Shown here in pieces: positions 35,658 through 47,273 of a stretch of DNA of 64,000 nucleotides. Numbering within the stretch: the stretch's first letter is position 1; every line of letters begins with the position of its first letter. The notes under the pieces are model-generated. The model saw only the letters and a list, made by a program, of their open reading frames with translations. It searched no databases and was not told the DNA's origin. A program made the translations under genes and the position numbers. The stretch covers positions 2,884,576 to 2,948,575 of the forward strand of contig OX639991.1 of assembly GCA_951828585.1 (NCBI GenBank), read 5' to 3'. The stretch comes from Longimicrobiales bacterium. Lineage in GTDB: Bacteria; Gemmatimonadota; Gemmatimonadetes; Longimicrobiales; Gaopeijiaceae.

Positions 35658-37886
35658 ATGATCAAGTGCATGGTAGCGAAACCCGGACATCCCAATGGCA
35701 GCCTGACGAAGCCGCCGTATCTGGCCGCGGCCCTTGCCGGGGCGGGCGTCTTTCTTCTCTACGTCCTGACCCTGGCCCCCGCGACCTCCTGGTGGGATAC
35801 CAGCGAATACATCGCCACGGCCCACACGCTGGGCCTGCCCCATCCGCCGGGCAATCCGCTTTTCGTGGCGGTCGGGCGGACCTGGTCCGTTCTGCTGGCG
35901 CCCCTGGGGCTCTCGCCTGCCGTTCGGATCAACCTCATGGCGGCCGCGACTTCGGCGGGCGCGTCCTTTTTCTTCTTTCTGGTTGTGCACCGCACCCTGG
36001 TGCAGATTCGGGGTGCCGGCCGGGAGGCGCTGATCGGGGCGGCGGCGGCGGTGGCGGTGTCGGCCACGGCCTTCACGGTGTGGAGCCAGAGCAACACCAA
36101 CGAGAAGGTCTACACGCTCTCTTTGCTGGTCGCGGCCGCGGTGAGCTGGCTGATGCTGCGCTGGTACGACCGCAGGCACGACCCGCGGAGCGTGACGCTG
36201 GTGATCCTTGCCATCTACCTGATGGCTGTGGGCGCCACCAATCACCTCATGTCGGTACTTCCGGCGGGGGCGGTGCTCGTCTTCATCTGTCTGACCCGGC
36301 CACGGCTGTTGGCGAACTCGAGGTTCCTGTCGTGGGGCGTCGCGGCCGTCGTCGTCGGACTTTCCTTCAACTTCTTCCTGCCGATACGCGCGGCCCAGCG
36401 CCCCGTGATCAACGAGGGGGATCCACGGTGCGGCGGGGTGGTGGAGACGGCCGTGGCGATCTACACCAACGGGGCCGCCGGATGTCCGGCGCTGGCCGCG
36501 TCACTCAGGCGCGACCAGTACGCGAAACCGCCGGTCACGACCCGCATGGCGCCCTTCTCCCACCAGCTTCTCAACTTCTTCCAGTACTTCGACTGGCAGT
36601 GGTCGCGGGGACTGGACCCGGACGAGCCTCCGAGCCGCAGCCGCCTCCCCTTCAGTCTGCTGTTCCTTGCCCTGGGAGGGGTCGGCTTCTTCACCGTCTG
36701 GAAGGGCGACAGGAGGACGGGCGCCTACTTCATGGTCTTCGGGGCCACGTTGTCGGTCGCGCTCGTCTTCTACCTCAACTTCCGCTACGGGTACTCGCTT
36801 GCGCTGGAAATAAGAGGCGAACGTACCCACGAGGTGCGCGAGCGCGACTACTTCTTCCTGCTCTTCTTCGCGCTGTGGGGGGCGATGGCCGGGCTGGGGG
36901 TGGCGCGGTGCTGGCTGTGGCTGGGGGACCGCATGGGGAGCCTTCGCAACGCGTCGCCGGTGTTGGCCGTGGCGGCGATCCCCTTCTTCCTGAACCTGAG
37001 CTGGGCCAACCGGGCCGGGGACTGGGCCGCCCGCGACTGGGCTTACGGACTGCTGACCAGCGTCGAGCCGTACGGCGTGATTTTCACCAACGGCGACAAC
37101 GACACCTTTCCGCTGTGGTATCTGCAGGAGGTGGAGGAGATCCGCCAGGACGTGACCGTGGTGGTGGTCCAGTACCTGTTCACGGAGTGGTACGCCAAAC
37201 AGCTGCGCGAGCTGACCGAACCGGGACGGCAGCGGCTCTTTGTGCCGGTCGAGGGGTTGCCGTATGGGGGCCGCGAGCCGCCGGAGGGGCCGGTGGTGGC
37301 GCTCACGGACGAGGAGATCGACACCGTTGAGGACGGGCCGCTTCGCGACAACCTGGCCGTGCGAATGGGCAACATGACGGTCCGGTACCCGAGGGGGATG
37401 GACGTTCGCAGCGGCCATCGGCTCGCGCTTGCGATTATCGATGCCTCGTCCGCCGAGAGGCCCATCTACTTCGCGTCCCGGAACGGAGAGATGCAGGAGA
37501 TGGGGCTCAGCGCGTGGGGAGTGTCGGAGGGTCTCGCGGTGCGGCTGCACATGCGGGATCTGGAGGGGGAGCAACCCGTGGAATACCGCCAGACGGGTGA
37601 GGGTCTGGGACGCGAATGGTTCAACTACCCGCGATCACGGCATCTCGTGGACGAGGTCTACAGCTACCGGGGGTTGCGCGCGCGAGAGATCTGGCAGGAC
37701 TACTCGACCAAGAGCATCGTCTACGGCTACTACCGGCTGACGGCGCTGCTCGCGGCGCTCACGGAGGTCGACGGTGAGATGGAGACGAGCCTACGCTACC
37801 AGGAGATGGCCAGGGAATTCCTGCACGGGTATCTGGGGGGATCGGAGGCGAGGCGGGAGCGCGCGCCGAATATCGCGATCGATTGA
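35658..37886 (+). CDS. DUF2723 membrane protein, glycosyltransferase family 117 type
   Basis: 742 residues from ATG 35658 (or 35670). The N-terminal half is a GT-C-type membrane domain with about ten helices. It carries APATSWWDTSEYIATAHTLG, the acidic first loop used for catalysis in GT-C enzymes, then GLPHPPGNPLFVAVGRTWSV and WSQSNTNEKVYTLSLL, all typical of DUF2723. The C-terminal half is soluble, with VIFTNGDNDTFPLWYLQEVE, the DNDT/PLWYLQ motif of the family. Members are predicted to transfer sugars to exported proteins (protein O-mannosyltransferase-like). The frame is open far upstream, but that part overlaps the divergent hydrolase. Confidence 0.88.
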   Translation: MIKCMVAKPGHPNGSLTKPPYLAAALAGAGVFLLYVLTLAPATSWWDTSEYIATAHTLGLPHPPGNPLFVAVGRTWSVLLAPLGLSPAVRINLMAAATSAGASFFFFLVVHRTLVQIRGAGREALIGAAAAVAVSATAFTVWSQSNTNEKVYTLSLLVAAAVSWLMLRWYDRRHDPRSVTLVILAIYLMAVGATNHLMSVLPAGAVLVFICLTRPRLLANSRFLSWGVAAVVVGLSFNFFLPIRAAQRPVINEGDPRCGGVVETAVAIYTNGAAGCPALAASLRRDQYAKPPVTTRMAPFSHQLLNFFQYFDWQWSRGLDPDEPPSRSRLPFSLLFLALGGVGFFTVWKGDRRTGAYFMVFGATLSVALVFYLNFRYGYSLALEIRGERTHEVRERDYFFLLFFALWGAMAGLGVARCWLWLGDRMGSLRNASPVLAVAAIPFFLNLSWANRAGDWAARDWAYGLLTSVEPYGVIFTNGDNDTFPLWYLQEVEEIRQDVTVVVVQYLFTEWYAKQLRELTEPGRQRLFVPVEGLPYGGREPPEGPVVALTDEEIDTVEDGPLRDNLAVRMGNMTVRYPRGMDVRSGHRLALAIIDASSAERPIYFASRNGEMQEMGLSAWGVSEGLAVRLHMRDLEGEQPVEYRQTGEGLGREWFNYPRSRHLVDEVYSYRGLRAREIWQDYSTKSIVYGYYRLTALLAALTEVDGEMETSLRYQEMAREFLHGYLGGSEARRERAPNIAID

Positions 37887-37923: not shown

Positions 37924-39387
37924 CTACCTGGTTCCTTCGTACCGGGACTTCCAGAGAGCCGACAGATCCTCGACCAGTTCGAACTCCGAGCTTGGGACTG
38001 CGATACCAAGGCGGTTGAACAGGAAAATCCTTCCGGACCACATACCGTCCTGTTCACTCCCCCCGGTGACGCTGAGGAGTACCCAGTCCCTCGGTTCGTC
38101 ATCCTCCTCCACACTGCTGACCTTGACGATGCCGCCCCTCACCACCAGCCGGCTGTCTTCGACCCGGATCCGATCGGCATTGACTTCGATGGTCTCCGCC
38201 CGGAGGTCGGGATCGTATTTGCGATGCACGGGGTGGAACCCTCGCGCCATCAGCTTGTTCGCGAATTCCACGGGAGTCTCGTTTCGGAAGGCGAGGCCCG
38301 GCCATGCTTCACGATCGGACGATTCCAATTCCGTTCCGTAAAACTCCACCAACCGCATTTGGCCCCACTCGATGACGGGAGGGTCCTCCCAGTAGATTCC
38401 GGCGATTCCAACGTCCCCGCTGCCGTTGTCGGCGCGCTCCACTGATTGAGCCTCCGCCGCCGCTCCGTTCGCGATCTCCGCAACCTGCGTCGGAGCCGGC
38501 GCATCGCACGCGATGGCCAGCGCGACCAGCGTCGCACCCGACAGCAACGCGACCTGACTCCTGTTCAACTTCCTCTTTCTCTCGCTCATCGTCTTCAATC
38601 TCCGTTCGAGCAGACTTTTCGGTTGACCCATTGCCAGGGCGAGTCCCCAGCGGGTTTGAGACAGCGACCCCGCCTCCAGGAGGACGGCGCCGTAGTCGGC
38701 AACGCCGATTCCCGACGCGATGACCCGCTGGTCGCAGTCGATTTCCACGGCGGCGCGCAGCCGTCGGCACATCCACCAGATCGCCGGGCTCCAGGGGAAC
38801 GCGGCCAGCACGAGACCGGCGTACAGCAGCGCGAGGTGGTCTCGGGCGCGAGCGTGTTCGGCTTCGTGGCGAATGATCGCGGACCGGGCGGCCGGTTGGA
38901 GCCCGAGCACCCAGCCCGGAAGCACGATGTCGGGCCTGACAACGCCGACGAGGGCGGGGCCGAAGCGGCGCGACACGCGGACATCGGTGCCGTCGACCTG
39001 TTGGCGCGGCCAGCGGCGGCGCGCGCGGGCGACTACCGTCAGAAGGGTGGCCAGCACGGCCAGGACAGCTCCTGATCCCGCCGCCCACGCGAGGTTGGCG
39101 GTCCTGGTAGTGTCGCGGCTGGTGGACAGGGGCACTTGCGGAACGATCGTCCAGCGCGCCACCGGAACGGGTAGGGTGATCGTGGGTACTTCGTCCACGG
39201 TCATCACCACGGGTGCCGTCGGCCTGCGCACTCCTCCCGCGAGCGGGATCAGGACCGCGAGGGTGAGCGCGACCAGCCAGGCGATGCGGCGGGGTCGTCT
39301 AAGGGCCGCGGCCAGCCGCTCGAGGGCCAGCGCGGCGGACGCGATGATGGCTCCGACGAGGGCCGCGTAGGTCATCCAGGTCAGCAT
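37924..39387 (-). CDS. M56 (BlaR1-like) membrane metalloprotease, copy 1, with unrelated C-terminal domain
   Basis: 487 residues. The N-terminal part is a BlaR1/MecR1-type membrane protease: helix pair from MLTWMTYAALVGAIIASAAL, then zinc motif IIRHEAEHARARDHLAL, WWMCRRLRAAVEIDCDQRVI, and the exit helix after MGQPKSLLERRLKTMSERKR. The C-terminal sensor is not a penicillin-binding domain but about 170 residues beginning IACDAPAPTQVAE with no recognisable family. Unlike copy 2 it lacks plug motifs. In BlaR1 systems the protease cleaves the BlaI repressor after a signal. It lies 18 bases downstream of copy 2, third gene of the BlaI operon. Confidence 0.85.
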   Translation of the reverse strand: MLTWMTYAALVGAIIASAALALERLAAALRRPRRIAWLVALTLAVLIPLAGGVRRPTAPVVMTVDEVPTITLPVPVARWTIVPQVPLSTSRDTTRTANLAWAAGSGAVLAVLATLLTVVARARRRWPRQQVDGTDVRVSRRFGPALVGVVRPDIVLPGWVLGLQPAARSAIIRHEAEHARARDHLALLYAGLVLAAFPWSPAIWWMCRRLRAAVEIDCDQRVIASGIGVADYGAVLLEAGSLSQTRWGLALAMGQPKSLLERRLKTMSERKRKLNRSQVALLSGATLVALAIACDAPAPTQVAEIANGAAAEAQSVERADNGSGDVGIAGIYWEDPPVIEWGQMRLVEFYGTELESSDREAWPGLAFRNETPVEFANKLMARGFHPVHRKYDPDLRAETIEVNADRIRVEDSRLVVRGGIVKVSSVEEDDEPRDWVLLSVTGGSEQDGMWSGRIFLFNRLGIAVPSSEFELVEDLSALWKSRYEGTR

Positions 39388-39405: not shown

Positions 39406-41127
39406 CTATTTGGGGCGCCGGGTCGACGGCTTGTCCGAGGACTCCTTCTTCGTGAAGACCAGGATGACCCCACTGGCCCCCTCTTCACCGTATTTCTCCC
39501 GCGCGGCCTCGCCCTTGATTACCTCTATGCGGTCGATGCGCTCGGGGCTCAGCGCGGGGTGCAGCTCATTCAGGGCGGAGACACCCCCATCCAGGCGGAC
39601 GCCATCGATATAGATGACCGGTTCCGCCCCGGTGGTCCCATCCCGACGCGGTCGGATAACCAGTTCCCTCAACTGTCTCGTCGCGTTCGCCGTTCCCGTC
39701 ACGACGATACTCCTGACGGATGGCACGTCGATGAGCTCGGCTTCGAGTTCCACCTTGATCGCCTGTCCCGTTACCACGAAATCCCCATCAGGTGAGACAC
39801 TCGCTTCGACTGGACTGAGGATCACGTCGGGCGCGGGCGGCACCACGATGACCTCGGGCACGGGCTCCCCATCCTCCGTGAAGACCTGGATCACCCCGCT
39901 TGCCGCTTGGTCGCCGTAGTGCAGCCTGGCCGCCGGTCCCTTCAGTATCTCGATGCGGGAAATATTGGAAGCCCTGCCGAAGTAGCAGCAGCTCCCGCTG
40001 GCTTCGGCGGTCGTGTCCGGGTTCTCGAACAACCCCCGCGCCGACTCCGGCAGGTCTTCCGTCATCCGGATCCGGACTCCATCCACGTACAGGAGCGGCG
40101 GTGGTTGCGAGCCGAACGCCTTGGCCTGCAGGAACCTCACGACCCAGTCCTCCTGCTGCGCATCGGCACCCTGTTCAGCCTCGTCTGCCATTACCTCCTC
40201 GAACGCCTCCCGCACCTCCGTCGGCACCGGCGTATCACACGCCACGACCACCGCCCCCACCGCCACCGCCACAAGCAGCGCCCCGTAGCCCCCACTCAGT
40301 TTCTTTCGCTTCTCGCTCATCGTCTTCAATCTCCGTTCAAGTAGACTTTCGGGTTGGCCCATGGCCGGGGCGAATCCCCAGCAGTCACGGGAACGGGACC
40401 CCGCGTCCAGGAGGACATCGCCGTAGTCGGCGACATCGATCCCGGACGCCAGGACGCGGTGGTCACAGTCAAGTTCCACGGCGGCGCGGAGCCGCCGGTA
40501 CATCCACCAGATCGCGGGGCTCCAGGGGAGCGTGGCCGCTACGAGGCCGCCGAAGAGCAGGACGAGGTGGTCCCGCGCGCGTGCGTGCTCGGTCTCGTGC
40601 CGGACGATCGCGTCCCGGGCGCCCGGTTCCAGTTCCATCACCCACGAGGGGATGACCACGTCCGGCCGGGTCACTCCCACCAGGGCGGGGCCGAAACGGC
40701 GGGACACGTAGACCTCGGCACCGTGCACCCTCGTTCGCTCCCAGCGGCGGCGTCCGCGGGCCACCTGCACCAGCACGCCGGCCAGAACGGCCAGTGAGGC
40801 CAGGGAGCCCGCGCCCCAGACGAGCGCTGCGATCCTGCCGGTGGGCATGCCTTGGGGAACCGGCAACGCGGGGATCACGCTCCACAAGTCCTCCACGGCG
40901 ATGCTGCCGGCAGTTGCCGGTGCCGCTGTTCCGCTCTCCACTGCCACTGGCACCACCTCGGGCCCGCGCCATCCTCCCACCAGCGGAATCACGACCGCCA
41001 ACGTCAACGCCGCGACCCAGGCAATCCGCCGCGGCTGCCCCATCGCTGCCGCCAGCCGTTCCATCGCCAACCCGCCCACCGCCACGATCCCGGCGATCAG
41101 CGCCGCGTACACCATCCAGGCAATCAT
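39406..41127 (-). CDS. M56 (BlaR1-like) membrane metalloprotease, copy 2, with TonB-plug-like sensor repeats
   Basis: 573 residues. Membrane protease part: MIAWMVYAALIAGIVAVGGL, zinc motif IVRHETEHARARDHLVL, WWMYRRLRAAVELDCDHRVL, MGQPESLLERRLKTMSEKRK and a last helix ending VVACDTPVPTEV. The extracytoplasmic part carries two plug-like units as in TonB-dependent receptors: ISRIEILKGPAARLHYGDQA with SGVIQVF, and IDRIEVIKGEAAREKYGEEG with SGVILVFTKK. Replacement of the beta-lactam sensor by plug domains suggests an envelope or ligand signal other than penicillin. Its start overlaps the BlaI stop by four bases (ATGA), so the two are coupled. Likely partner of that repressor. Confidence 0.87.
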   Translation of the reverse strand: MIAWMVYAALIAGIVAVGGLAMERLAAAMGQPRRIAWVAALTLAVVIPLVGGWRGPEVVPVAVESGTAAPATAGSIAVEDLWSVIPALPVPQGMPTGRIAALVWGAGSLASLAVLAGVLVQVARGRRRWERTRVHGAEVYVSRRFGPALVGVTRPDVVIPSWVMELEPGARDAIVRHETEHARARDHLVLLFGGLVAATLPWSPAIWWMYRRLRAAVELDCDHRVLASGIDVADYGDVLLDAGSRSRDCWGFAPAMGQPESLLERRLKTMSEKRKKLSGGYGALLVAVAVGAVVVACDTPVPTEVREAFEEVMADEAEQGADAQQEDWVVRFLQAKAFGSQPPPLLYVDGVRIRMTEDLPESARGLFENPDTTAEASGSCCYFGRASNISRIEILKGPAARLHYGDQAASGVIQVFTEDGEPVPEVIVVPPAPDVILSPVEASVSPDGDFVVTGQAIKVELEAELIDVPSVRSIVVTGTANATRQLRELVIRPRRDGTTGAEPVIYIDGVRLDGGVSALNELHPALSPERIDRIEVIKGEAAREKYGEEGASGVILVFTKKESSDKPSTRRPK

Positions 41128-41525
41128 CCGTCATCCCCCCTGCGCTCCACGCGGTCCAGGATCGAACGCATCCGTGCGATCTCTTCCGCGCTGAACTCCC
41201 GGTCCTCAACCAGGGTGGCCAGCAGACGCTCGGCCGAGCCGTGGAAGATCTTGTTCACGATGCGCGTGAGCGCGCGTCCGCCCGCCCGCACCGACTCCAC
41301 AAGCGGGAAGTAGCGGTAGGCGCGTCCCTCCTGCTCGTGGCCCACGGCGCCTTTCTCCTCCAGGATCTGCAGCATCTTGAGGACGGTGGTGTAGCCGACG
41401 TCCTCGCCGAGGGCCTCCCGGACTTCGGTGACGGTGCCGGATCCCTCGCGCCACAGCACGCTCATGATGTCGAGCTCGCGGTCGGTGAAGCCCTTGGGTT
41501 CCTGCTTCTCTCGTTTGCGGGTCAT
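41124..41525 (-). CDS. BlaI/MecI-family winged-helix repressor
   Basis: 133 residues from ATG 41525. FTDRELDIMSVLWREGSGTV and VREALGEDVGYTTVLKMLQI are the winged-helix DNA-binding part. ILEEKGAVGHEQEGRAYRYF is the wing, after which the usual cleavage region follows; the C-terminal dimerisation helices include RIVNKIFHGSAERLLATLVE. BlaI proteins repress their own operon and are inactivated by cleavage by the M56 partner. The first M56 gene overlaps it. Two inverted repeats flanking its promoter (41577-41647) are probable binding sites. An in-frame ATG at 41570 is possible but less likely. Confidence 0.92.
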   Translation of the reverse strand: MTRKREKQEPKGFTDRELDIMSVLWREGSGTVTEVREALGEDVGYTTVLKMLQILEEKGAVGHEQEGRAYRYFPLVESVRAGGRALTRIVNKIFHGSAERLLATLVEDREFSAEEIARMRSILDRVERRGDDG

Positions 41526-41576
41526 CCGTCGTAGCTCCCGTTTCTCATCGTGGTGGTGACTTCCCCGCACGTTTTC

Positions 41577-41647
41577 ACGACGAATCTCGTAATTCCTTGG
41601 TACCCACGTTATAGAGCAAGGACCCGAATGTCAACGACAATCTTCGT
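41577..41647 (-). promoter_or_regulatory. BlaI operon promoter with two operator dyads
   Basis: On the minus strand: TTGACA (41634-41629) as -35 and TAACGT (41611-41606) as -10 with a 17-base spacer; TATAAC at 41613-41608 is an alternative -10. Two inverted repeats of the form ACGA-N6-TCGT lie at 41634-41647 (abutting the -35) and 41577-41590 (downstream of the -10). The same promoter and both dyads recur at 43955-44026 before the truncated BlaI copy, as expected if BlaI binds there. Confidence 0.7.
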
Positions 41648-41759
41648 AAAAGATGCCAGAGCCGGGTCGGTCACTGCGGTCCGTCCTGCGGCACCCGGTC
41701 GGCTCGGCGTCGGCCCCGCTCGAAACTCCCAGCCGGGAAAGGTCCCAAGGCGAGAACAA

Positions 41760-41869: not shown

Positions 41870-42709
41870 TCACCCTATTCGGAGTCCTCCGCAACCGTCC
41901 ACGGCTCGCATGCGTCGCAGCTCCTCCTTCGTGAACCCCCGGTCCTCCCCCAGCAGGGCCTCCGACGAGCCGAGGTCTGGCCCGCCCTTGGTGAGAATCA
42001 GGATGATGCCGGAAGCCTCTTCGCCGTAGAACAAATGGGCCATACACCGACCCTTGATCACCTCCATCCGGTCGATATCGGTCGGAAGAAGCTCGTAGAT
42101 TTCCGGTCCGCCCGGGTCGACGCGCACACCGTCGATGTTGACGATCGGCGCAGACGCCACGAACGCGGCACGCTGGAGCACCGGCTGGCGCTCCTCCAGC
42201 GTCCGGGCCGCCCGCGACACCAACACCAGGGTGTCGGTCGCCGCCTCGCGCAGCCCCAGGGCCGTCGTTAGCACGTCGCTCTGCTCCGTGATCGCGTCCG
42301 GGTCCTTCGTGAAGACGTGGATGACTCCGCCGGCCGCTACGGGTCCGTACAGCTTCGCCGCATCCACTCGCTTCAGGACCTCGACGCGCTCGATCCGGGG
42401 GTCCCAAATGGGGTCCTCGAGGAAGCTCCGCACGGGCTCCGGCATGTCTTCGGAACGTTCCAGAACGATGCGGACGCCGTCCAGGTAAACGAGCGGCGCG
42501 CCTTCGTACCTCAGGAGGGCCCAGCCTTCGAGGCTGACCACCTCCCTCTCCACATCGGCGCCCCGGCGGCCCTGGTCGACCATCGCCTCCTCGACCACGT
42601 CCCTCACCTCCGTCGGCATCGGGGTATCACACGCCCCCACCGCCACCGCCACCAGCAACGCCCCATAGCCGCCGCTCACCTTCCTTCGCTTCTCATTCAT
42701 CGTCTTCAA
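41870..42709 (-). CDS. Plug-only remnant of an M56 protein (copy 3)
   Basis: 279 residues that begin exactly where the last membrane helix of the M56 copies starts (KTMNEKRRKVSGGYGALLVA against KTMSEKRKKLSGGYGALLVA). The whole membrane protease part is missing. Decayed sequence matching the LLERRLKTM stretch continues upstream to about 42770. Two plug-like units remain (VEVLKRVDAAKLYGPVAAGG and MEVIKGRCMAHLFYGEEASG). As it stands, the start plus VAVAVGACDTP could act as a lipoprotein signal, so a small envelope plug protein might still be made. More likely it is a decaying duplicate. It follows the broken copy 4 directly. Confidence 0.6.
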   Translation of the reverse strand: MKTMNEKRRKVSGGYGALLVAVAVGACDTPMPTEVRDVVEEAMVDQGRRGADVEREVVSLEGWALLRYEGAPLVYLDGVRIVLERSEDMPEPVRSFLEDPIWDPRIERVEVLKRVDAAKLYGPVAAGGVIHVFTKDPDAITEQSDVLTTALGLREAATDTLVLVSRAARTLEERQPVLQRAAFVASAPIVNIDGVRVDPGGPEIYELLPTDIDRMEVIKGRCMAHLFYGEEASGIILILTKGGPDLGSSEALLGEDRGFTKEELRRMRAVDGCGGLRIG

Positions 42710-42781: not shown

Positions 42782-43795
42782 TCACTTCTTCAGGAAGATC
42801 AGGATCACCCCGAGAACTTGCCCCCCCAGAGATTGTCCCGGTCGGATTCCGCCGGACTCTCAGCCACGGGCTCCACGATCCCCGCGGGCCGGTCCTTCGT
42901 GAAGATCCGGATGGCGCCGTTGGCACCCTCGTCGCCGAAGAGTTCGTGGGACCTCGCACCGCTGATCACTTCGACGCGGTCGACCAGTCCGTCCGTCCTG
43001 AGGCCGCTCTCCGACCAGAGCCGGACCGATTCGGGCAGGTCCTCGTAGCGCCCGACACGGACATCGCCCAAGAACACGAGCGGAGCCGGGTCCGAGACGA
43101 ACCACTTGGCCAGATAGGCGTCGTAGGAGTCCCGGGTCCCGTCGGTCGGTGTGCCTTCCCGGGCCTCCCGGGCCTGAACGTCGATCGCCTCCGCGACTGC
43201 GTCGCCCAGTTCCGTCGGCAACGGCACGTCGCACGCCGCCACCAGCGCGCCCGCCGCCACGCAGGCGAGCACGGCCCCGCGGCCCGGACCCAGCTTCTCT
43301 TGTTTCTCGCTCATCGCCTTAAGTCTCCTTTCGAGCAGACTCCCGGGTTGCCCCATCGCGGGGGCGAATCCCCACCAGCCACGCGACCGGGTTCCCGCGT
43401 TCAGGAGGATGGCGCCGTAGTCGGCGACTCCGATCCCCGACGCCAGGACCCGTTCATCGCAGTCCATTTCCACCGCGGCGCGAAGCCGCCGGCACATCCA
43501 CCAGATCGCCGGGCTCCACGGGAACACCGCCGCGGCGAGGCAGCCGTAGAGCAGCGCCGGCCGCCACAGGGACCCCGCCGACCAGCGACGAAACGGCCGA
43601 TGTGGCCTCCTGTACCGCGGGCGCGACAGGGGCGCCAGTGCTCCCCGCCAGGGGGATTGCCACTGCCAGGGTCAACGCCGCGAGCCAGGCGAACCGACGC
43701 GGCCACCCTGCCGAGGCTGCCAGTCGCTCGAGCGCAAACCCGGCAGCCGCCATCAGCAGCGCTACCAGAGCCGCGTACAGCATCCAGGCGATCAT
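42782..43795 (-). pseudogene. Broken M56 protein with plug domain (copy 4)
   Basis: The first 75 codons from 43795 match the M56 N-terminus (MIAWMLYAALVALLMAAAGF, RRFAWLAALTLAVAIPLAGS), then the frame changes near 43560. The other frame resumes at FPWSPAIWWMCRRLRAAVEM and DCDERVLASGIGVADYGAIL. The stretch holding the HExxH zinc site is deleted. The membrane exit helix, one plug unit (DRVEVISGARSHELFGDEGA) and a second one follow. Near 42811 one base is missing from a G-run, so the normal ending SGVILIFLKK is out of frame and the protein stops at KFSG. It cannot be an active protease. Confidence 0.8.
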
Positions 43796-43829: not shown

Positions 43830-43904
43830 TCATGCGTCCCTCAAGATGTCGAGTTCGCGGTCGGTGAAGCCCCTCGGTTCACGCTTCTCTCGCTGGCCGT
43901 TCAT
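43830..43904 (-). pseudogene. Truncated BlaI repressor (24 codons)
   Basis: MNGQREKREPRGFTDRELDI, then LRDA and a stop. It matches the first 25 residues of the intact BlaI (TRKREKQEPKGFTDRELDIM), with everything else deleted down to a remnant of the 3' end beside the M56 start. It keeps its promoter and operators upstream. It is the decayed partner of copy 4 and supports duplication of the whole BlaI-M56 cassette. Confidence 0.8.
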
Positions 43905-43954
43905 CCGTCCTGCTTCTCCCTATGTCGCCGCGCCGGGTAACCCCCGGAGCTTTC

Positions 43955-44026
43955 ACGAAGGATCTCGTAATGCCCTTGATACCCACGTTAGGGACGGGAG
44001 ATCCGATTGTCAACGACAGTCTTCGT
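43955..44026 (-). promoter_or_regulatory. Second BlaI-type promoter with two operator dyads
   Basis: TTGACA (44013-44008), a 17-base spacer, TAACGT (43990-43985), and ACGA-N6-TCGT dyads at 44013-44026 and 43955-43968. The layout equals the intact cassette at 41577-41647. If still bound by BlaI it would place the copy 4/copy 3 remnants under the intact repressor. Confidence 0.68.
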
Positions 44027-44099
44027 AGCAGGTGTCGGCATCGGAGTGGTCCATTGTGACCGGTCGGAACCCCCAGCGAATCGGACTAGCGGCGCAGAA

Positions 44100-44207: not shown

Positions 44208-45674
44208 TCACCCCCCCTCCCTCCCCGCCGCCACCTCCTCCATCACCTCCCGCACACGCTCCCCGAACCCCCGCGCCCGCTCCATCACCTCCTCTTCGTC
44301 CACCGTGAGGATCTCACCGTCCTGCACCACCACCCGCCCATTCACGATCACGGTGGCCACGTCGCTACCGCGCGCCGCGTACACCAGGTGCGAATAGACG
44401 CTATACAGCGGCGTCAGCCCGGGCCGCCGCACGTCCACCAGCACGATGTCGGCGCGCTTGCCCGGCTCCAGCGACCCGATCTCGTCGTGCAGGTTGAGCA
44501 CGCGCGCGCCGCCCATGGTGGCCAGGCGAAACACGGTCTCCGCGGGGAGGGCCGCCGGGTCTCCCAGGATGAACTTCTGGACCTTGGCCGCGGCGTCCAT
44601 CTCGTCGAACATGTCGAGGTCGTTGTTGCTGGCGGGCCCGTCCGTGCCCAGCCCCACCGGGATCCCCGCCGCCAGCGCCGCGGCCACCGGGGCCGCCCTA
44701 GCGACGCCCAGCTTCATGTTGCTTTGCGGGTTGTGCGCGATCCCGGCACCGCCCGCCGCGATGCGCTGAATGTCCTCGTCCGACAGGTAGATCGAGTGGG
44801 CGAGCACCGTCCCGGGCCGGAGCGCGCCGATCGATTCCAGGGCCTCGACCACCCCCATGCCGGTCTGTTCGCGTGCGGTGACATCTTCGGACGGGTCCTC
44901 GACCGCGTGGATCTGGAAGGGGGCGTCGTACCGTTCGGCGAGACGGAAGGCGGCCTCGACGGCCTCCAATGGCGTGGTGTAGAGCGCGTGGGCGGCGACG
45001 GCCGGGACCACGGTGGGATGGTCCTGGTAACGCTCCATGAACTCTGCCGCGTCCGCGAGCGAGGCCTCGGGGGTGGCGAAGTCGGGGGTGGGGAAGCCGA
45101 TGACGTGCGGTCCGGTGACCGCGCGGATGCCGGCGTCGATGGTGGCCCGGGCCATGTCGTCGCGGAAGTAATACATATCGGCGAAAGTCGTAGTACCGCT
45201 CTTCAGCATCTCGACCGACGAGAGGAGGGTGCCCCAGTAGACGAAATCGGGGGCGACGAGCGCGGCCTCGGCGGGGAAGATGTAGTCGTTCAGCCAGGTC
45301 ATGAGGGGGAGGTCGTCGGCGAGGCCGCGCAGCAGCGACATGGCGGCATGGCCGTGCGTGTTGACCAGACCGGGGATGACGAGGTGGCCGGTGGCGTCGA
45401 TGACGCGGGCGTTCGCGGGGCGGGGGCCGCCCGCGGCGATGATCGAGGAGATGCGGTCGCCCTCGACGACCACCGCCGCGCCTTCGAGGATCAGGCCGGA
45501 CTCGTCCATGACGACGACGGTGCCGCCGTCGATGAGGAGGGGGGCGTCATCCTGGGTAGGGGCGGTGTCGTCGCCGCATGCCGCGACCAGCAGGAGGGTC
45601 AGGAGCGCGAGCCGGGTGGCGTGCTCCGCCGCGCGGAAACAGGAGCGGTCACAGTGAACTTCGCTGATGGCCAT
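44208..45674 (-). CDS. Amidohydrolase lipoprotein, MTA/SAH-deaminase-like
   Basis: 488 residues with a lipoprotein signal (LALLTLLLVAACGDDT). The amidohydrolase core shows the sandwich start LLIDGGTVVVMDESGLILEG, the metal strand LVIPGLVNTHGHAAMSLLRG, then LPLMTWLNDYIFPAEAALVA, which is characteristic of the TrzA/MtaD deaminase branch. Further on are HALYTTPLEAVEAAFRLAER, FQIHAVEDPSEDVTAREQTG, VLAHSIYLSDEDI and LGTDGPASNNDLDMFDEMD. Cytoplasmic relatives deaminate methylthioadenosine, S-adenosylhomocysteine or triazines. The lipoprotein signal here implies an exported enzyme with a different substrate. GKRADIVLVDVRRPGLTPLY closes the fold. Confidence 0.87.
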   Translation of the reverse strand: MAISEVHCDRSCFRAAEHATRLALLTLLLVAACGDDTAPTQDDAPLLIDGGTVVVMDESGLILEGAAVVVEGDRISSIIAAGGPRPANARVIDATGHLVIPGLVNTHGHAAMSLLRGLADDLPLMTWLNDYIFPAEAALVAPDFVYWGTLLSSVEMLKSGTTTFADMYYFRDDMARATIDAGIRAVTGPHVIGFPTPDFATPEASLADAAEFMERYQDHPTVVPAVAAHALYTTPLEAVEAAFRLAERYDAPFQIHAVEDPSEDVTAREQTGMGVVEALESIGALRPGTVLAHSIYLSDEDIQRIAAGGAGIAHNPQSNMKLGVARAAPVAAALAAGIPVGLGTDGPASNNDLDMFDEMDAAAKVQKFILGDPAALPAETVFRLATMGGARVLNLHDEIGSLEPGKRADIVLVDVRRPGLTPLYSVYSHLVYAARGSDVATVIVNGRVVVQDGEILTVDEEEVMERARGFGERVREVMEEVAAGREGG

Positions 45675-45875: not shown

Positions 45876-47273
45876 CTACCCCGAGTGCTTCGCCGCCAGC
45901 GCCTCCAACCCCGCATCGATTTCCACGCGGCCGACCCACCGCCCTCGCACCATCACCCCCACGCGGTCGAAGAGGTTGGCCAGGTCGTCGAGGGGGTTGG
46001 ACCCCAGGAGCACCAGGTCGGCGCGTTGTCCCGGAGCGATCGTCCCGAAGTTGCCGTCGAGCCCCAGGTGTGAGGCGACGTATTCCCCCACGGCCACCGT
46101 CCCGCTCTTCAGGATTTCGTAGTTGGACATCCCCGCGTCGGCCATCACCTGCAGCTCCCGGTGGAGCGCGAATCCGGGCACGTTGAAGAGCTGGGGTGAA
46201 TCGGTCCCCATGAGGACCCCGGCCCCCGCGTCGGAGAGCGCCTTGAGGACGCGCTTGCGGAGTTGAAAGAAAGCCGCCAGTTCCTCGGGACTGCCCTGGC
46301 CCCCTCCCGCCCTCCGGCGCCAGCCTTCTCGCGTTCCCGGGGATACATACCGCATCTCCGGCTGCTGCAACAACTCGTTAGCATCCGGCCGACCACACAG
46401 GTTTTCCCAGAGGTACATCGTAGGTACCACGTAGACGTCGTGCTCGATCGTCATGCGGATGGCCTGGTCGAGCTTGGCCTCGTCCAACGCATCCGCCAGC
46501 CCCACGGGGCAGGTCTGTCCAGCGCTCACCTGTGCCTGCACATCATCCGACGCGATCGCCTGGATGTACCCGTCCAGGTGGTCGACCGTGGACATGCCGG
46601 TCTCGATCGCGTGCACCAGCCCTACATCGGCGGGGACATGGCCGGCCCAGGTGAGGCCCACTTCGCGGGCGACCTCAACCATGTGGTTCCATGTCTCCCG
46701 GGAGACCCCCGGGTGGATCTTCTGCAGGTGGTACCCGGCTTCGGCGTGGGCCCGCAGGAGGCGCTCAGCGGCCTCGGGCGTCGGGGCCGAACCTCCGTTG
46801 ATCGAGGGCGCGCCCACGTAGAAGTTCGGGCCGAGCACCTCGCCGCCTTCGATCTCTTCCGCGAGGGGGATCTGGTAGGCGGAGCCGAGCATGCCCCGGA
46901 TCGTGGTGATCCCGTTTGCCACATAGAGGAACAGGATGTCCTCGACCTCCTCTCGGGGTGGATTGGCCCCGGGCGGCACGTGGGCGTGCATTTCGGCCAA
47001 CCCCGGCATGAGAAACCGGCCATTGCCGTTGATGACCGCGGCGCCCGGGGGCGCGTCGACATCGTCCGCCGATCCGACAGCGGTGATCACGCCCCCTGAG
47101 ACGACCACGTACTGGTTGGGCACCACCTCGTCCGAACTCATCGGCAGGATGGTCACGTTCGTGAACACGATCGGACCGGGAGCCTCCTGCGCCTGGGCCC
47201 TGCCCGGTGACAGGATGGCCGTCGCGATGATCGCGGCGAATGACACGCGTAGTAACGACTTCATGAGATTCAT
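45876..47273 (-). CDS. Secreted amidohydrolase, imidazolonepropionase-like
   Basis: 465 residues from ATG 47273, with a GAGGGA site just upstream and a signal peptide (LLRVSFAAIIATAILSPGRA). The metal strand is LMPGLAEMHAHVPPGANPPR. It is followed by LYVANGITTIRGMLGSAYQI, then LTWAGHVPADVGLVHAIETG and MSTVDHLDGYIQAIA with the next metal His residues, and VLMGTDSPQLFNVPGFALHR with the catalytic Asp. GQRADLVLLGSNPLDDLANL ends the fold. This secreted group is abundant in Gemmatimonadota. Substrates are mostly unknown, possibly cyclic dipeptides or prolidase-type peptides. It is divergent from the unknown protein to the right. The 200 bases to its left hold no confident gene. Confidence 0.87.
   Translation of the reverse strand: MNLMKSLLRVSFAAIIATAILSPGRAQAQEAPGPIVFTNVTILPMSSDEVVPNQYVVVSGGVITAVGSADDVDAPPGAAVINGNGRFLMPGLAEMHAHVPPGANPPREEVEDILFLYVANGITTIRGMLGSAYQIPLAEEIEGGEVLGPNFYVGAPSINGGSAPTPEAAERLLRAHAEAGYHLQKIHPGVSRETWNHMVEVAREVGLTWAGHVPADVGLVHAIETGMSTVDHLDGYIQAIASDDVQAQVSAGQTCPVGLADALDEAKLDQAIRMTIEHDVYVVPTMYLWENLCGRPDANELLQQPEMRYVSPGTREGWRRRAGGGQGSPEELAAFFQLRKRVLKALSDAGAGVLMGTDSPQLFNVPGFALHRELQVMADAGMSNYEILKSGTVAVGEYVASHLGLDGNFGTIAPGQRADLVLLGSNPLDDLANLFDRVGVMVRGRWVGRVEIDAGLEALAAKHSG

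What the first reader, a model, noticed from the sequence alone, without database searches (positions are those of the whole stretch)
39406..41525. BlaI-M56 pair whose sensor is a TonB-plug-like domain instead of a penicillin-binding domain
The M56 protease coupled to BlaI by an ATGA overlap carries two repeats of the xRIEVIKGxxA...YGxxGASGVIxVF pattern, known from plug domains of TonB-dependent receptors. In BlaR1/MecR1 this position holds the beta-lactam sensor. The neighbour M56 copy 1 has a third, unrelated C-terminus. This suggests a family of signal-dependent repressor-cleavage systems with interchangeable sensors, possibly monitoring outer membrane transport or envelope protein folding.
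Basis: partly seen in the sequence, partly recalled or inferred. Interest (0 to 1): 0.6.

Follow-up and report, generated by a model that had tools for sequence, protein, structure and literature searches.

The report
BlaR1-like protease with plug-domain sensor
A sponge-associated Gemmatimonadota bacterium has a relative of the penicillin-sensing BlaR1/BlaI switch in which the antibiotic sensor is replaced by two half-copies of the plug domain of outer-membrane transporters; the switch has its own small regulon, whose commonest target in related species is an exported amidohydrolase.

Summary
Window 39406-41127(-) is a BlaR1-type M56 protease (HETEH). It overlaps blaI (41124-41525) by ATGA and carries two C-terminal plug modules (Pfam Plug 5e-12, twice the cut-off; Foldseek hits BlaR1, then SusC/TonB-receptor plugs). 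Each module covers only the second half of a plug, and there is no barrel. M56-plug is widespread in Gemmatimonadota, nearly always beside BlaI. C-terminal domains have been exchanged repeatedly on the M56 tree (plug, TonB_C, both; Cache or DUF3471 in Proteobacteria).

Beyond the finding: (1) the switch has a dedicated regulon. The operator/-35 signature TACGAN6TCGTTGACA occurs 25 times in 23 congeneric genomes, 0 in the control. All 25 precede an exported TRZ/ATZ-type amidohydrolase (10), blaI (5), M56 (8), a standalone plug lipoprotein (1) or a propeller lipoprotein (1). No TonB receptor is among them. (2) All 60 plug-type M56 proteins end TM4 in a lipobox-like Cys, usually followed by D/E. 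TM4 plus plug also exists as standalone lipoprotein-like genes. (3) The upstream copies in the window are decayed.

Best reading: a bla-like induction circuit with a plug-type sensor and an amidohydrolase output. The ligand is unknown; outer-membrane monitoring is not shown. In three genomes amidohydrolase-blaI stands without any M56-plug.

The parts
41124..41525 (-). blaI: BlaI/MecI-type repressor, 133 aa
   Evidence: Pfam Penicillinase_R 3.5e-29; ortholog of 80% identity or more in 21 of 23 congeneric genomes
39406..41127 (-). M56 receptor protease with two plug modules, 573 aa; ATGA overlap with blaI
   Evidence: Pfam M56 and Plug; model matches BlaR1 with Z 18 over residues 1-261
40585..40599 (-). 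zinc motif HETEH (residues 177-181), with the further invariant ExDCD at residues 218-222 (40462-40476)
   Evidence: H177, E178, H181, E218, D220-D222 invariant in 35 and 48 aligned proteins
40234..40293 (-). TM4 (residues 279-298) ending in the lipobox-like VVAC-D, Cys297 at 40237-40239
   Evidence: C297 invariant in 35 of 35 plug-type proteins, 60 of 60; the TM4 region has the lowest dN/dS against three of the four orthologs (0.06-0.15; 0.25 against the fourth)
39874..40107 (-). plug module 1 (residues 341-418)
   Evidence: Pfam Plug second stretch; whole-genome Plug search 40-107 and 53-107 of 107 for the two modules
39691..39777 (-). linker with two VVTG motifs resembling TonB boxes (residues 451-479)
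   Evidence: motif 20 times in plug-type C-termini against 3.7 in shuffles, but mostly in this ortholog group
39442..39627 (-). plug module 2 (residues 501-562)
   Evidence: Pfam Plug 497-554; model of the module alone matches SusC 8aa4, probability 1.00, TM 0.63
37924..39387 (-). second M56 protease with a C-terminus of unknown kind, downstream in the same operon
   Evidence: Pfam M56 1.1e-14; orthologs L098:6739-8142 and L099:2498-3910
41629..41648 (-). operator 1 overlapping the -35 box: TACGAAGATTGTCGTTGACA
   Evidence: one of three such sites in the whole genome, control 0
41576..41591 (-). operator 2: TACGAGATTCGTCGTG, 57 bp downstream of operator 1
44008..44027 (-). operator 1 of the decayed upstream copy: TACGAAGACTGTCGTTGACA; its operator 2 is at 43954-43969
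43830..43904 (-). blaI fragment: MNGQREKREPRGFTDRELDILRDA, then stop
   Evidence: sequence
42805..43795 (-). decayed M56 copy, catalytic segment deleted and frame broken, one plug module
   Evidence: ORFs 43454-43795 and 42805-43527
41870..42709 (-). TM4 plus two plug modules without protease (mini-M56), ending in a BlaI-like tail
   Evidence: Pfam Plug 6.8e-8
44208..45674 (-). exported TRZ/ATZ-type amidohydrolase with lipobox (LLVAAC-G); under this regulon in relatives
   Evidence: Amidohydro_1 5e-71; PRK09045 413 bits, below its cut-off; ortholog in 22 of 23 congeneric genomes

Best explanation
A BlaR1-like induction circuit with a different sensor and a different output. BlaI represses its own operon and a handful of other promoters through paired TACGA-N6-TCGT operators (shown as sequence; binding inferred). 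The M56 protein sits in the inner membrane with its zinc protease facing the cytoplasm and its plug modules in the periplasm (topology inferred from BlaR1 and the model). A periplasmic cue acting on the plug modules is passed through TM4, the protease becomes active and cleaves BlaI, and the regulon is induced (inferred by homology). The regulon makes more sensors (M56-plug, standalone plug lipoproteins) and, in many congeneric genomes, an exported TRZ/ATZ-type amidohydrolase. The logic is that of blaI-blaR1-blaZ: repressor, receptor protease, and an exported hydrolase that probably acts on the inducer or a related compound. Cue and substrate are unknown; an N-heterocycle or cyclic amide is the guess.
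For: M56 fold, zinc ligands and fourth TM as in BlaR1. BlaI adjacent in most M56-plug loci across three orders. 25 of 25 operator/-35 sites in 16 genomes lie before blaI, M56, the amidohydrolase, a plug lipoprotein or a propeller lipoprotein, and 24 have a second operator 44-59 bp on; the control pattern gives 0. Orphan M56-plug genes far from blaI also carry the operator pair. In 10 genomes the amidohydrolase has the operators, and the second one lies in its first codons (MYExxR). Amidohydrolase and BlaI orthologs are in 22 and 21 of 23 congeneric genomes, mostly adjacent. The sensor evolves fast (dN/dS 0.4-1.0) while protease and TM4 are constrained.
Against: No ligand and no experiment. Three genomes keep amidohydrolase-blaI but have no M56-plug of this clade, so another M56, or nothing, must act on BlaI there. 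In the window's own genome the amidohydrolase lacks an upstream operator. A sister genus has no amidohydrolase beside the operon; there a propeller lipoprotein diverges from blaI in some members.
Confidence: 0.6

Rival explanations
1. The plug modules are a TonB-coupled sensor. VVTG motifs before plug module 2 act as TonB boxes, so that TonB, when not engaged with transporters, pairs with the M56 protein and pulls on TM4. The protease then reports TonB or transporter occupancy.
For: Two VVTG motifs in the linker, up to five in orthologs; 20 against 3.7 expected in plug-type C-termini. The model's match to TonB receptors starts at residue 467, just before the VVTG strand. TonB_C domains sit on sister M56 proteins, sometimes in one chain with plug modules.
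Against: The motif is found in 10 of 53 plug-type proteins, mainly in the window's own ortholog group. No TonB receptor is in the regulon. The standalone plug lipoproteins look short of reach for force transfer (inference).
Confidence: 0.15
2. The plug modules are a passive or decaying decoration: a stretch picked up from a SusC-like receptor that only spaces or anchors the protein, while M56 acts on BlaI independently of it.
For: dN/dS of plug modules 0.4-1.0 and of linkers about 1; several copies lack a recognisable module or are decayed; the tree needs 15 gains or losses of the plug.
Against: All 60 plug-type proteins keep the TM4 Cys; standalone plug lipoproteins of the sister genus are under purifying selection (dN/dS 0.23-0.65), and one standalone gene of this genus has its own operator pair; the G, D and P positions of the module are nearly invariant.
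Confidence: 0.2
3. A classical beta-lactam receptor operon, mis-described.
For: BlaI and M56 belong to the same families as BlaI and BlaR1.
Against: No penicillin-binding domain in Pfam or NCBIfam; blaR1_generic scores 31.2 bits against a cut-off of 400; no beta-lactamase gene among the 25 operator sites.
Confidence: 0.03

Closest known systems
BlaR1/MecR1 with BlaI/MecI (S. aureus, B. licheniformis)
   Same: four-TM M56 zinc protease fold (Z 18 to 8ext), BlaI-family repressor, translational coupling, paired operators around the promoter, an exported hydrolase in the regulon of relatives
   Different: sensor is one or two half-plug modules instead of a class-D-like penicillin-binding domain; lipobox-like Cys at the end of TM4; operator TACGAAGATCTTCGTA; output is an amidohydrolase
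Plug domain of SusC/RagA and other TonB-dependent receptors (PF07715)
   Same: sequence (46.7 bits) and predicted fold of the second half of the plug, including the VDG...IERIEVIKG.AA..YG..A.GVI.I.TK core
   Different: no barrel, first half of the plug missing, inner-membrane tether, two copies
M56 proteins with a TonB_C domain (same genome: L020, L022)
   Same: M56 core, BlaI neighbour
   Different: TonB C-terminal domain as the periplasmic part; no Cys at the end of TM4 in these two
RsiV/RsiP anti-sigma factors cut by signal peptidase (PMC6066255, PMC8844934)
   Same: a membrane regulator whose signal-peptide-like helix may be a peptidase site; a lead only
   Different: anti-sigma factors, not M56; Gram-positive; no such cleavage is shown here

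Membership tests
M56 / BlaR1-type receptor protease | Peptidase_M56 domain with HExxH and third ligand | tested here: met
   Pfam 52.8 bits against cut-off 31; H177, E178, H181, E218 invariant
M56 / BlaR1-type receptor protease | four TM helices with BlaR1 fold | tested here: met
   AlphaFold model, Z 18.0 to 8ext over residues 1-261; helix 279-298 as TM4
M56 / BlaR1-type receptor protease | gene pair with a BlaI-family repressor | tested here: met
   ATGA overlap; adjacent in most relatives; exceptions
M56 / BlaR1-type receptor protease | autocleavage and cleavage of the repressor on signal | not testable with these tools
   needs biochemistry
BlaR1/MecR1 beta-lactam receptor proper | class-D-like penicillin-binding sensor domain | tested here: not met
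   no such match in Pfam or NCBIfam; blaR1_generic 31.2 bits, cut-off 400
TonB-dependent receptor | plug domain | tested here: met
   PF07715 46.7 bits, cut-off 23.9, but only its second half
TonB-dependent receptor | C-terminal beta-barrel | tested here: not met
   573 aa fully accounted for; protein ends after plug module 2
BlaI/MecI repressor | Penicillinase_R domain | tested here: met
   101.9 bits, cut-off 22.6
BlaI/MecI repressor | palindromic operator at its own promoter | tested here: met
   paired TACGA-N6-TCGT around the promoter, conserved; binding itself not tested
Bacterial lipoprotein (for the TM4-plug segment) | lipobox Cys after a positively charged, hydrophobic signal segment | tested here: inconclusive
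   pattern present and invariant, but internal in the M56 protein; N-terminal in the standalone genes

The most novel reading that the evidence does not exclude
TM4 is a working internal lipoprotein signal peptide. The M56-plug chain is lipidated at Cys297 and possibly cut there by signal peptidase II, giving a protease and a separate, inner-membrane plug lipoprotein from one gene. The standalone plug lipoproteins of the regulon would then be interchangeable with, or competitors of, the product cut from the protease. That would be a receptor protease built as a polyprotein, with sensor and protease meeting again in the membrane.
Probability: 0.25. Interest if true: 0.8.

Novelty: new variant of a known kind. 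Interest (0 to 1): 0.6.

Why it matters
BlaR1 is the textbook receptor that signals by cutting a repressor. Here the same protease and repressor families come with a sensor borrowed from outer-membrane transporters, and the C-terminal domain has been swapped many times. The small regulon, readable from sequence alone, gives a testable target: an exported TRZ/ATZ-type amidohydrolase. The invariant Cys at the end of TM4, shared with standalone lipoprotein-like copies, raises a concrete question about how the sensor is anchored and signals.

Tried and rejected
Literature: seven full-text searches for M56 or BlaR1 with plug, TonB, sensor diversity or domain surveys found no description of M56-plug proteins; an eighth on barrel-less plugs found nothing relevant, and the one promising paper was a false hit, 'M5625' and the gene bamI. 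Bacteroidota and Acidobacteriota survey: not possible. The single genome scan returned Gemmatimonadota and some Proteobacteria, and a plasmid locus cannot serve as a search centre; the one Spirosoma plasmid M56 beside BlaI has no recognisable plug. From memory, M56-plug fusions also occur in Bacteroidota database entries; this was not tested. Cys and plug association across the tree: too few independent pairs for a test, so the 60-of-60 count is not independent evidence. TonB-box idea kept only as a rival, because the motif is confined mainly to one ortholog group. Broad operator search with 3 mismatches was too noisy; adding the -35 hexamer solved it.

Full report
What is there. Window 39406-41127(-) encodes a 573-aa M56 protein whose start overlaps the stop of blaI (41124-41525) by ATGA. 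Pfam finds Peptidase_M56 (4.3e-14) and Plug (5.2e-12, two stretches); BlaI is Penicillinase_R (3.5e-29). The SusC/RagA signature of NCBIfam is just over its cut-off. Both modules match only the second half of the Plug profile. An AlphaFold model from 48 relatives (mean pLDDT 76, above 90 in most of the protease) matches S. aureus BlaR1 first and then plug domains of SusC, PirA and BtuB; VIA-align gives Z 18 to BlaR1 over residues 1-261 and up to 6.1 to SusC-type plugs over 467-568. Module 2 folded alone finds SusC plugs first (probability 1.00, TM 0.63, E 0.02).

Surroundings. The operon goes on with a second M56 (37924-39387) of unknown C-terminus. Upstream lie a second operator pair (44008-44027 and 43954-43969), a blaI fragment (43830-43904), an M56 copy with its catalytic segment deleted (42805-43795), and a TM4-plus-two-plugs piece ending in a BlaI-like tail (41870-42709). 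In relatives the same place holds tandem arrays of up to four complete M56 genes behind one blaI. The genome (one contig, 4.47 Mb) has 13 M56 and 10 BlaI matches. The named relatives are sponge-associated and other Gemmatimonadota MAGs, including a Longimicrobiales chromosome of the same genus and, further off, Candidatus Palauibacter; that the sources are sponges is read from the isolate names and from memory.

Sensor exchange. Of 48 relatives scanned singly, all have M56, 36 a Plug, 5 TonB_C. The same genome has M56-TonB_C (L020, L022) and M56 proteins whose C-termini look like propellers (L014, L019, by inspection and a weak NHL match). Some relatives carry plug and TonB_C in one chain. Proteobacterial relatives of this M56 clade carry a Cache or a DUF3471 domain instead. 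On a tree of 121 M56 cores the C-terminal class changes at least 24 times, and well-supported branches alone force 9 changes for the plug; the 'other' class includes degenerate plugs, so part of this is loss.

Regulon. blaI promoters carry two TACGA-N6-TCGT dyads, the first overlapping the -35 box. The signature TACGAN6TCGTTGACA occurs 25 times in 16 of 23 congeneric genomes and never in the control. Downstream of the 25 sites lie: amidohydrolase 10, blaI 5, M56 8 (one of them the decayed copy in this window), standalone plug protein 1, propeller lipoprotein 1; 24 have a second dyad 44-59 bp on. In the window's genome there are three sites: blaI, the decayed copy, and an orphan M56 with a degenerate plug 31 kb away. 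At the amidohydrolase the second dyad lies in the first codons. The amidohydrolase ortholog is in 22 of 23 congeneric genomes and BlaI in 21, mostly adjacent. In five genomes the operon is amidohydrolase-blaI without M56; two of these have an operator-bearing M56-plug elsewhere, three have none of this clade. The amidohydrolase belongs to the TRZ/ATZ and MTA/SAH deaminase group and has a lipobox. In a sister genus the operon is blaI-M56-plug lipoprotein, with a propeller lipoprotein divergent from blaI in some members.

TM4. Cys297 at the end of TM4 is invariant in 35 of 35 plug-type proteins and has a lipobox context in 60 of 60, against 9 of 19 TonB_C types without plug, 26 of 32 other Gemmatimonadota types and 0 of 10 Proteobacteria. 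The next residue is D or E in 77 of 95; ordinary predicted lipoproteins in the same loci have D or E in at most 6 of 50. TM4 has the lowest dN/dS against three of four orthologs. Standalone TM4-plug genes follow M56 in the sister genus (nine copies, dN/dS 0.23-0.65), and a two-plug form occurs in four congeneric genomes (0.7-1.1, so weakly constrained). A lipidated or cleavable TM4 is inference; the counts are not phylogenetically independent.

Mechanism. Shown: families, predicted fold, gene order, operator sequences and the genes behind them, constraint. Inferred: BlaI binding, protease activity on BlaI, topology, sensing by the plug, lipidation. By homology to BlaR1/BlaI (PMC9834060, PMC7593790) the likeliest circuit is induction by cleavage of BlaI on a periplasmic cue, with an exported amidohydrolase as output in many congeneric genomes. 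That the plug monitors outer-membrane transport is possible (VVTG motifs, TonB_C sister proteins) but nothing in the regulon points to it.

Novelty. Each part is a known family; no paper found describes the combination, its regulon or the TM4 Cys. It is a new variant of the BlaR1/BlaI kind. Interest 0.6.

Noticed in passing
L151, L158 (Bradyrhizobium): M56 proteins of the same clade with a Cache-like sensor domain (L158 scanned: 39.6 bits, just under the Pfam cut-off; L151 by similarity), beside BlaI: a plausible small-molecule receptor protease in a well-studied genus.
   Followed up: partly
L141, L152, L153, L157, L158, L167, L169, L172: In proteobacterial relatives TM4 ends in a V/A-x-A motif like a signal peptidase I site, where Gemmatimonadota have the lipobox-like Cys.
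   Followed up: no
L079, L147, L168, L171, L173: M56 proteins that carry both a TonB_C domain and plug modules in one chain.
   Followed up: partly
L119, L121, L122, L128: MAG contigs titled Gammaproteobacteria that carry the Gemmatimonadota operon; L128's contig has the same length as G083:C108, which is placed in the window's own family, so the titles look wrong.
   Followed up: partly
window 45876-47246(-): A second exported amidohydrolase-like gene next to the first one, without the operator.
   Followed up: no
window 35658-37883(+): A large membrane protein convergent to the M56 operon is kept next to it or to blaI in several relatives (L109, L205-L209).
   Followed up: no
L189:1578-2849; L115:3148-4365; L175:185-1531: Propeller-type lipoproteins under or beside the same operators; L189 matches PF17170 (6-bladed beta-propeller) with 34.5 bits.
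   Followed up: partly
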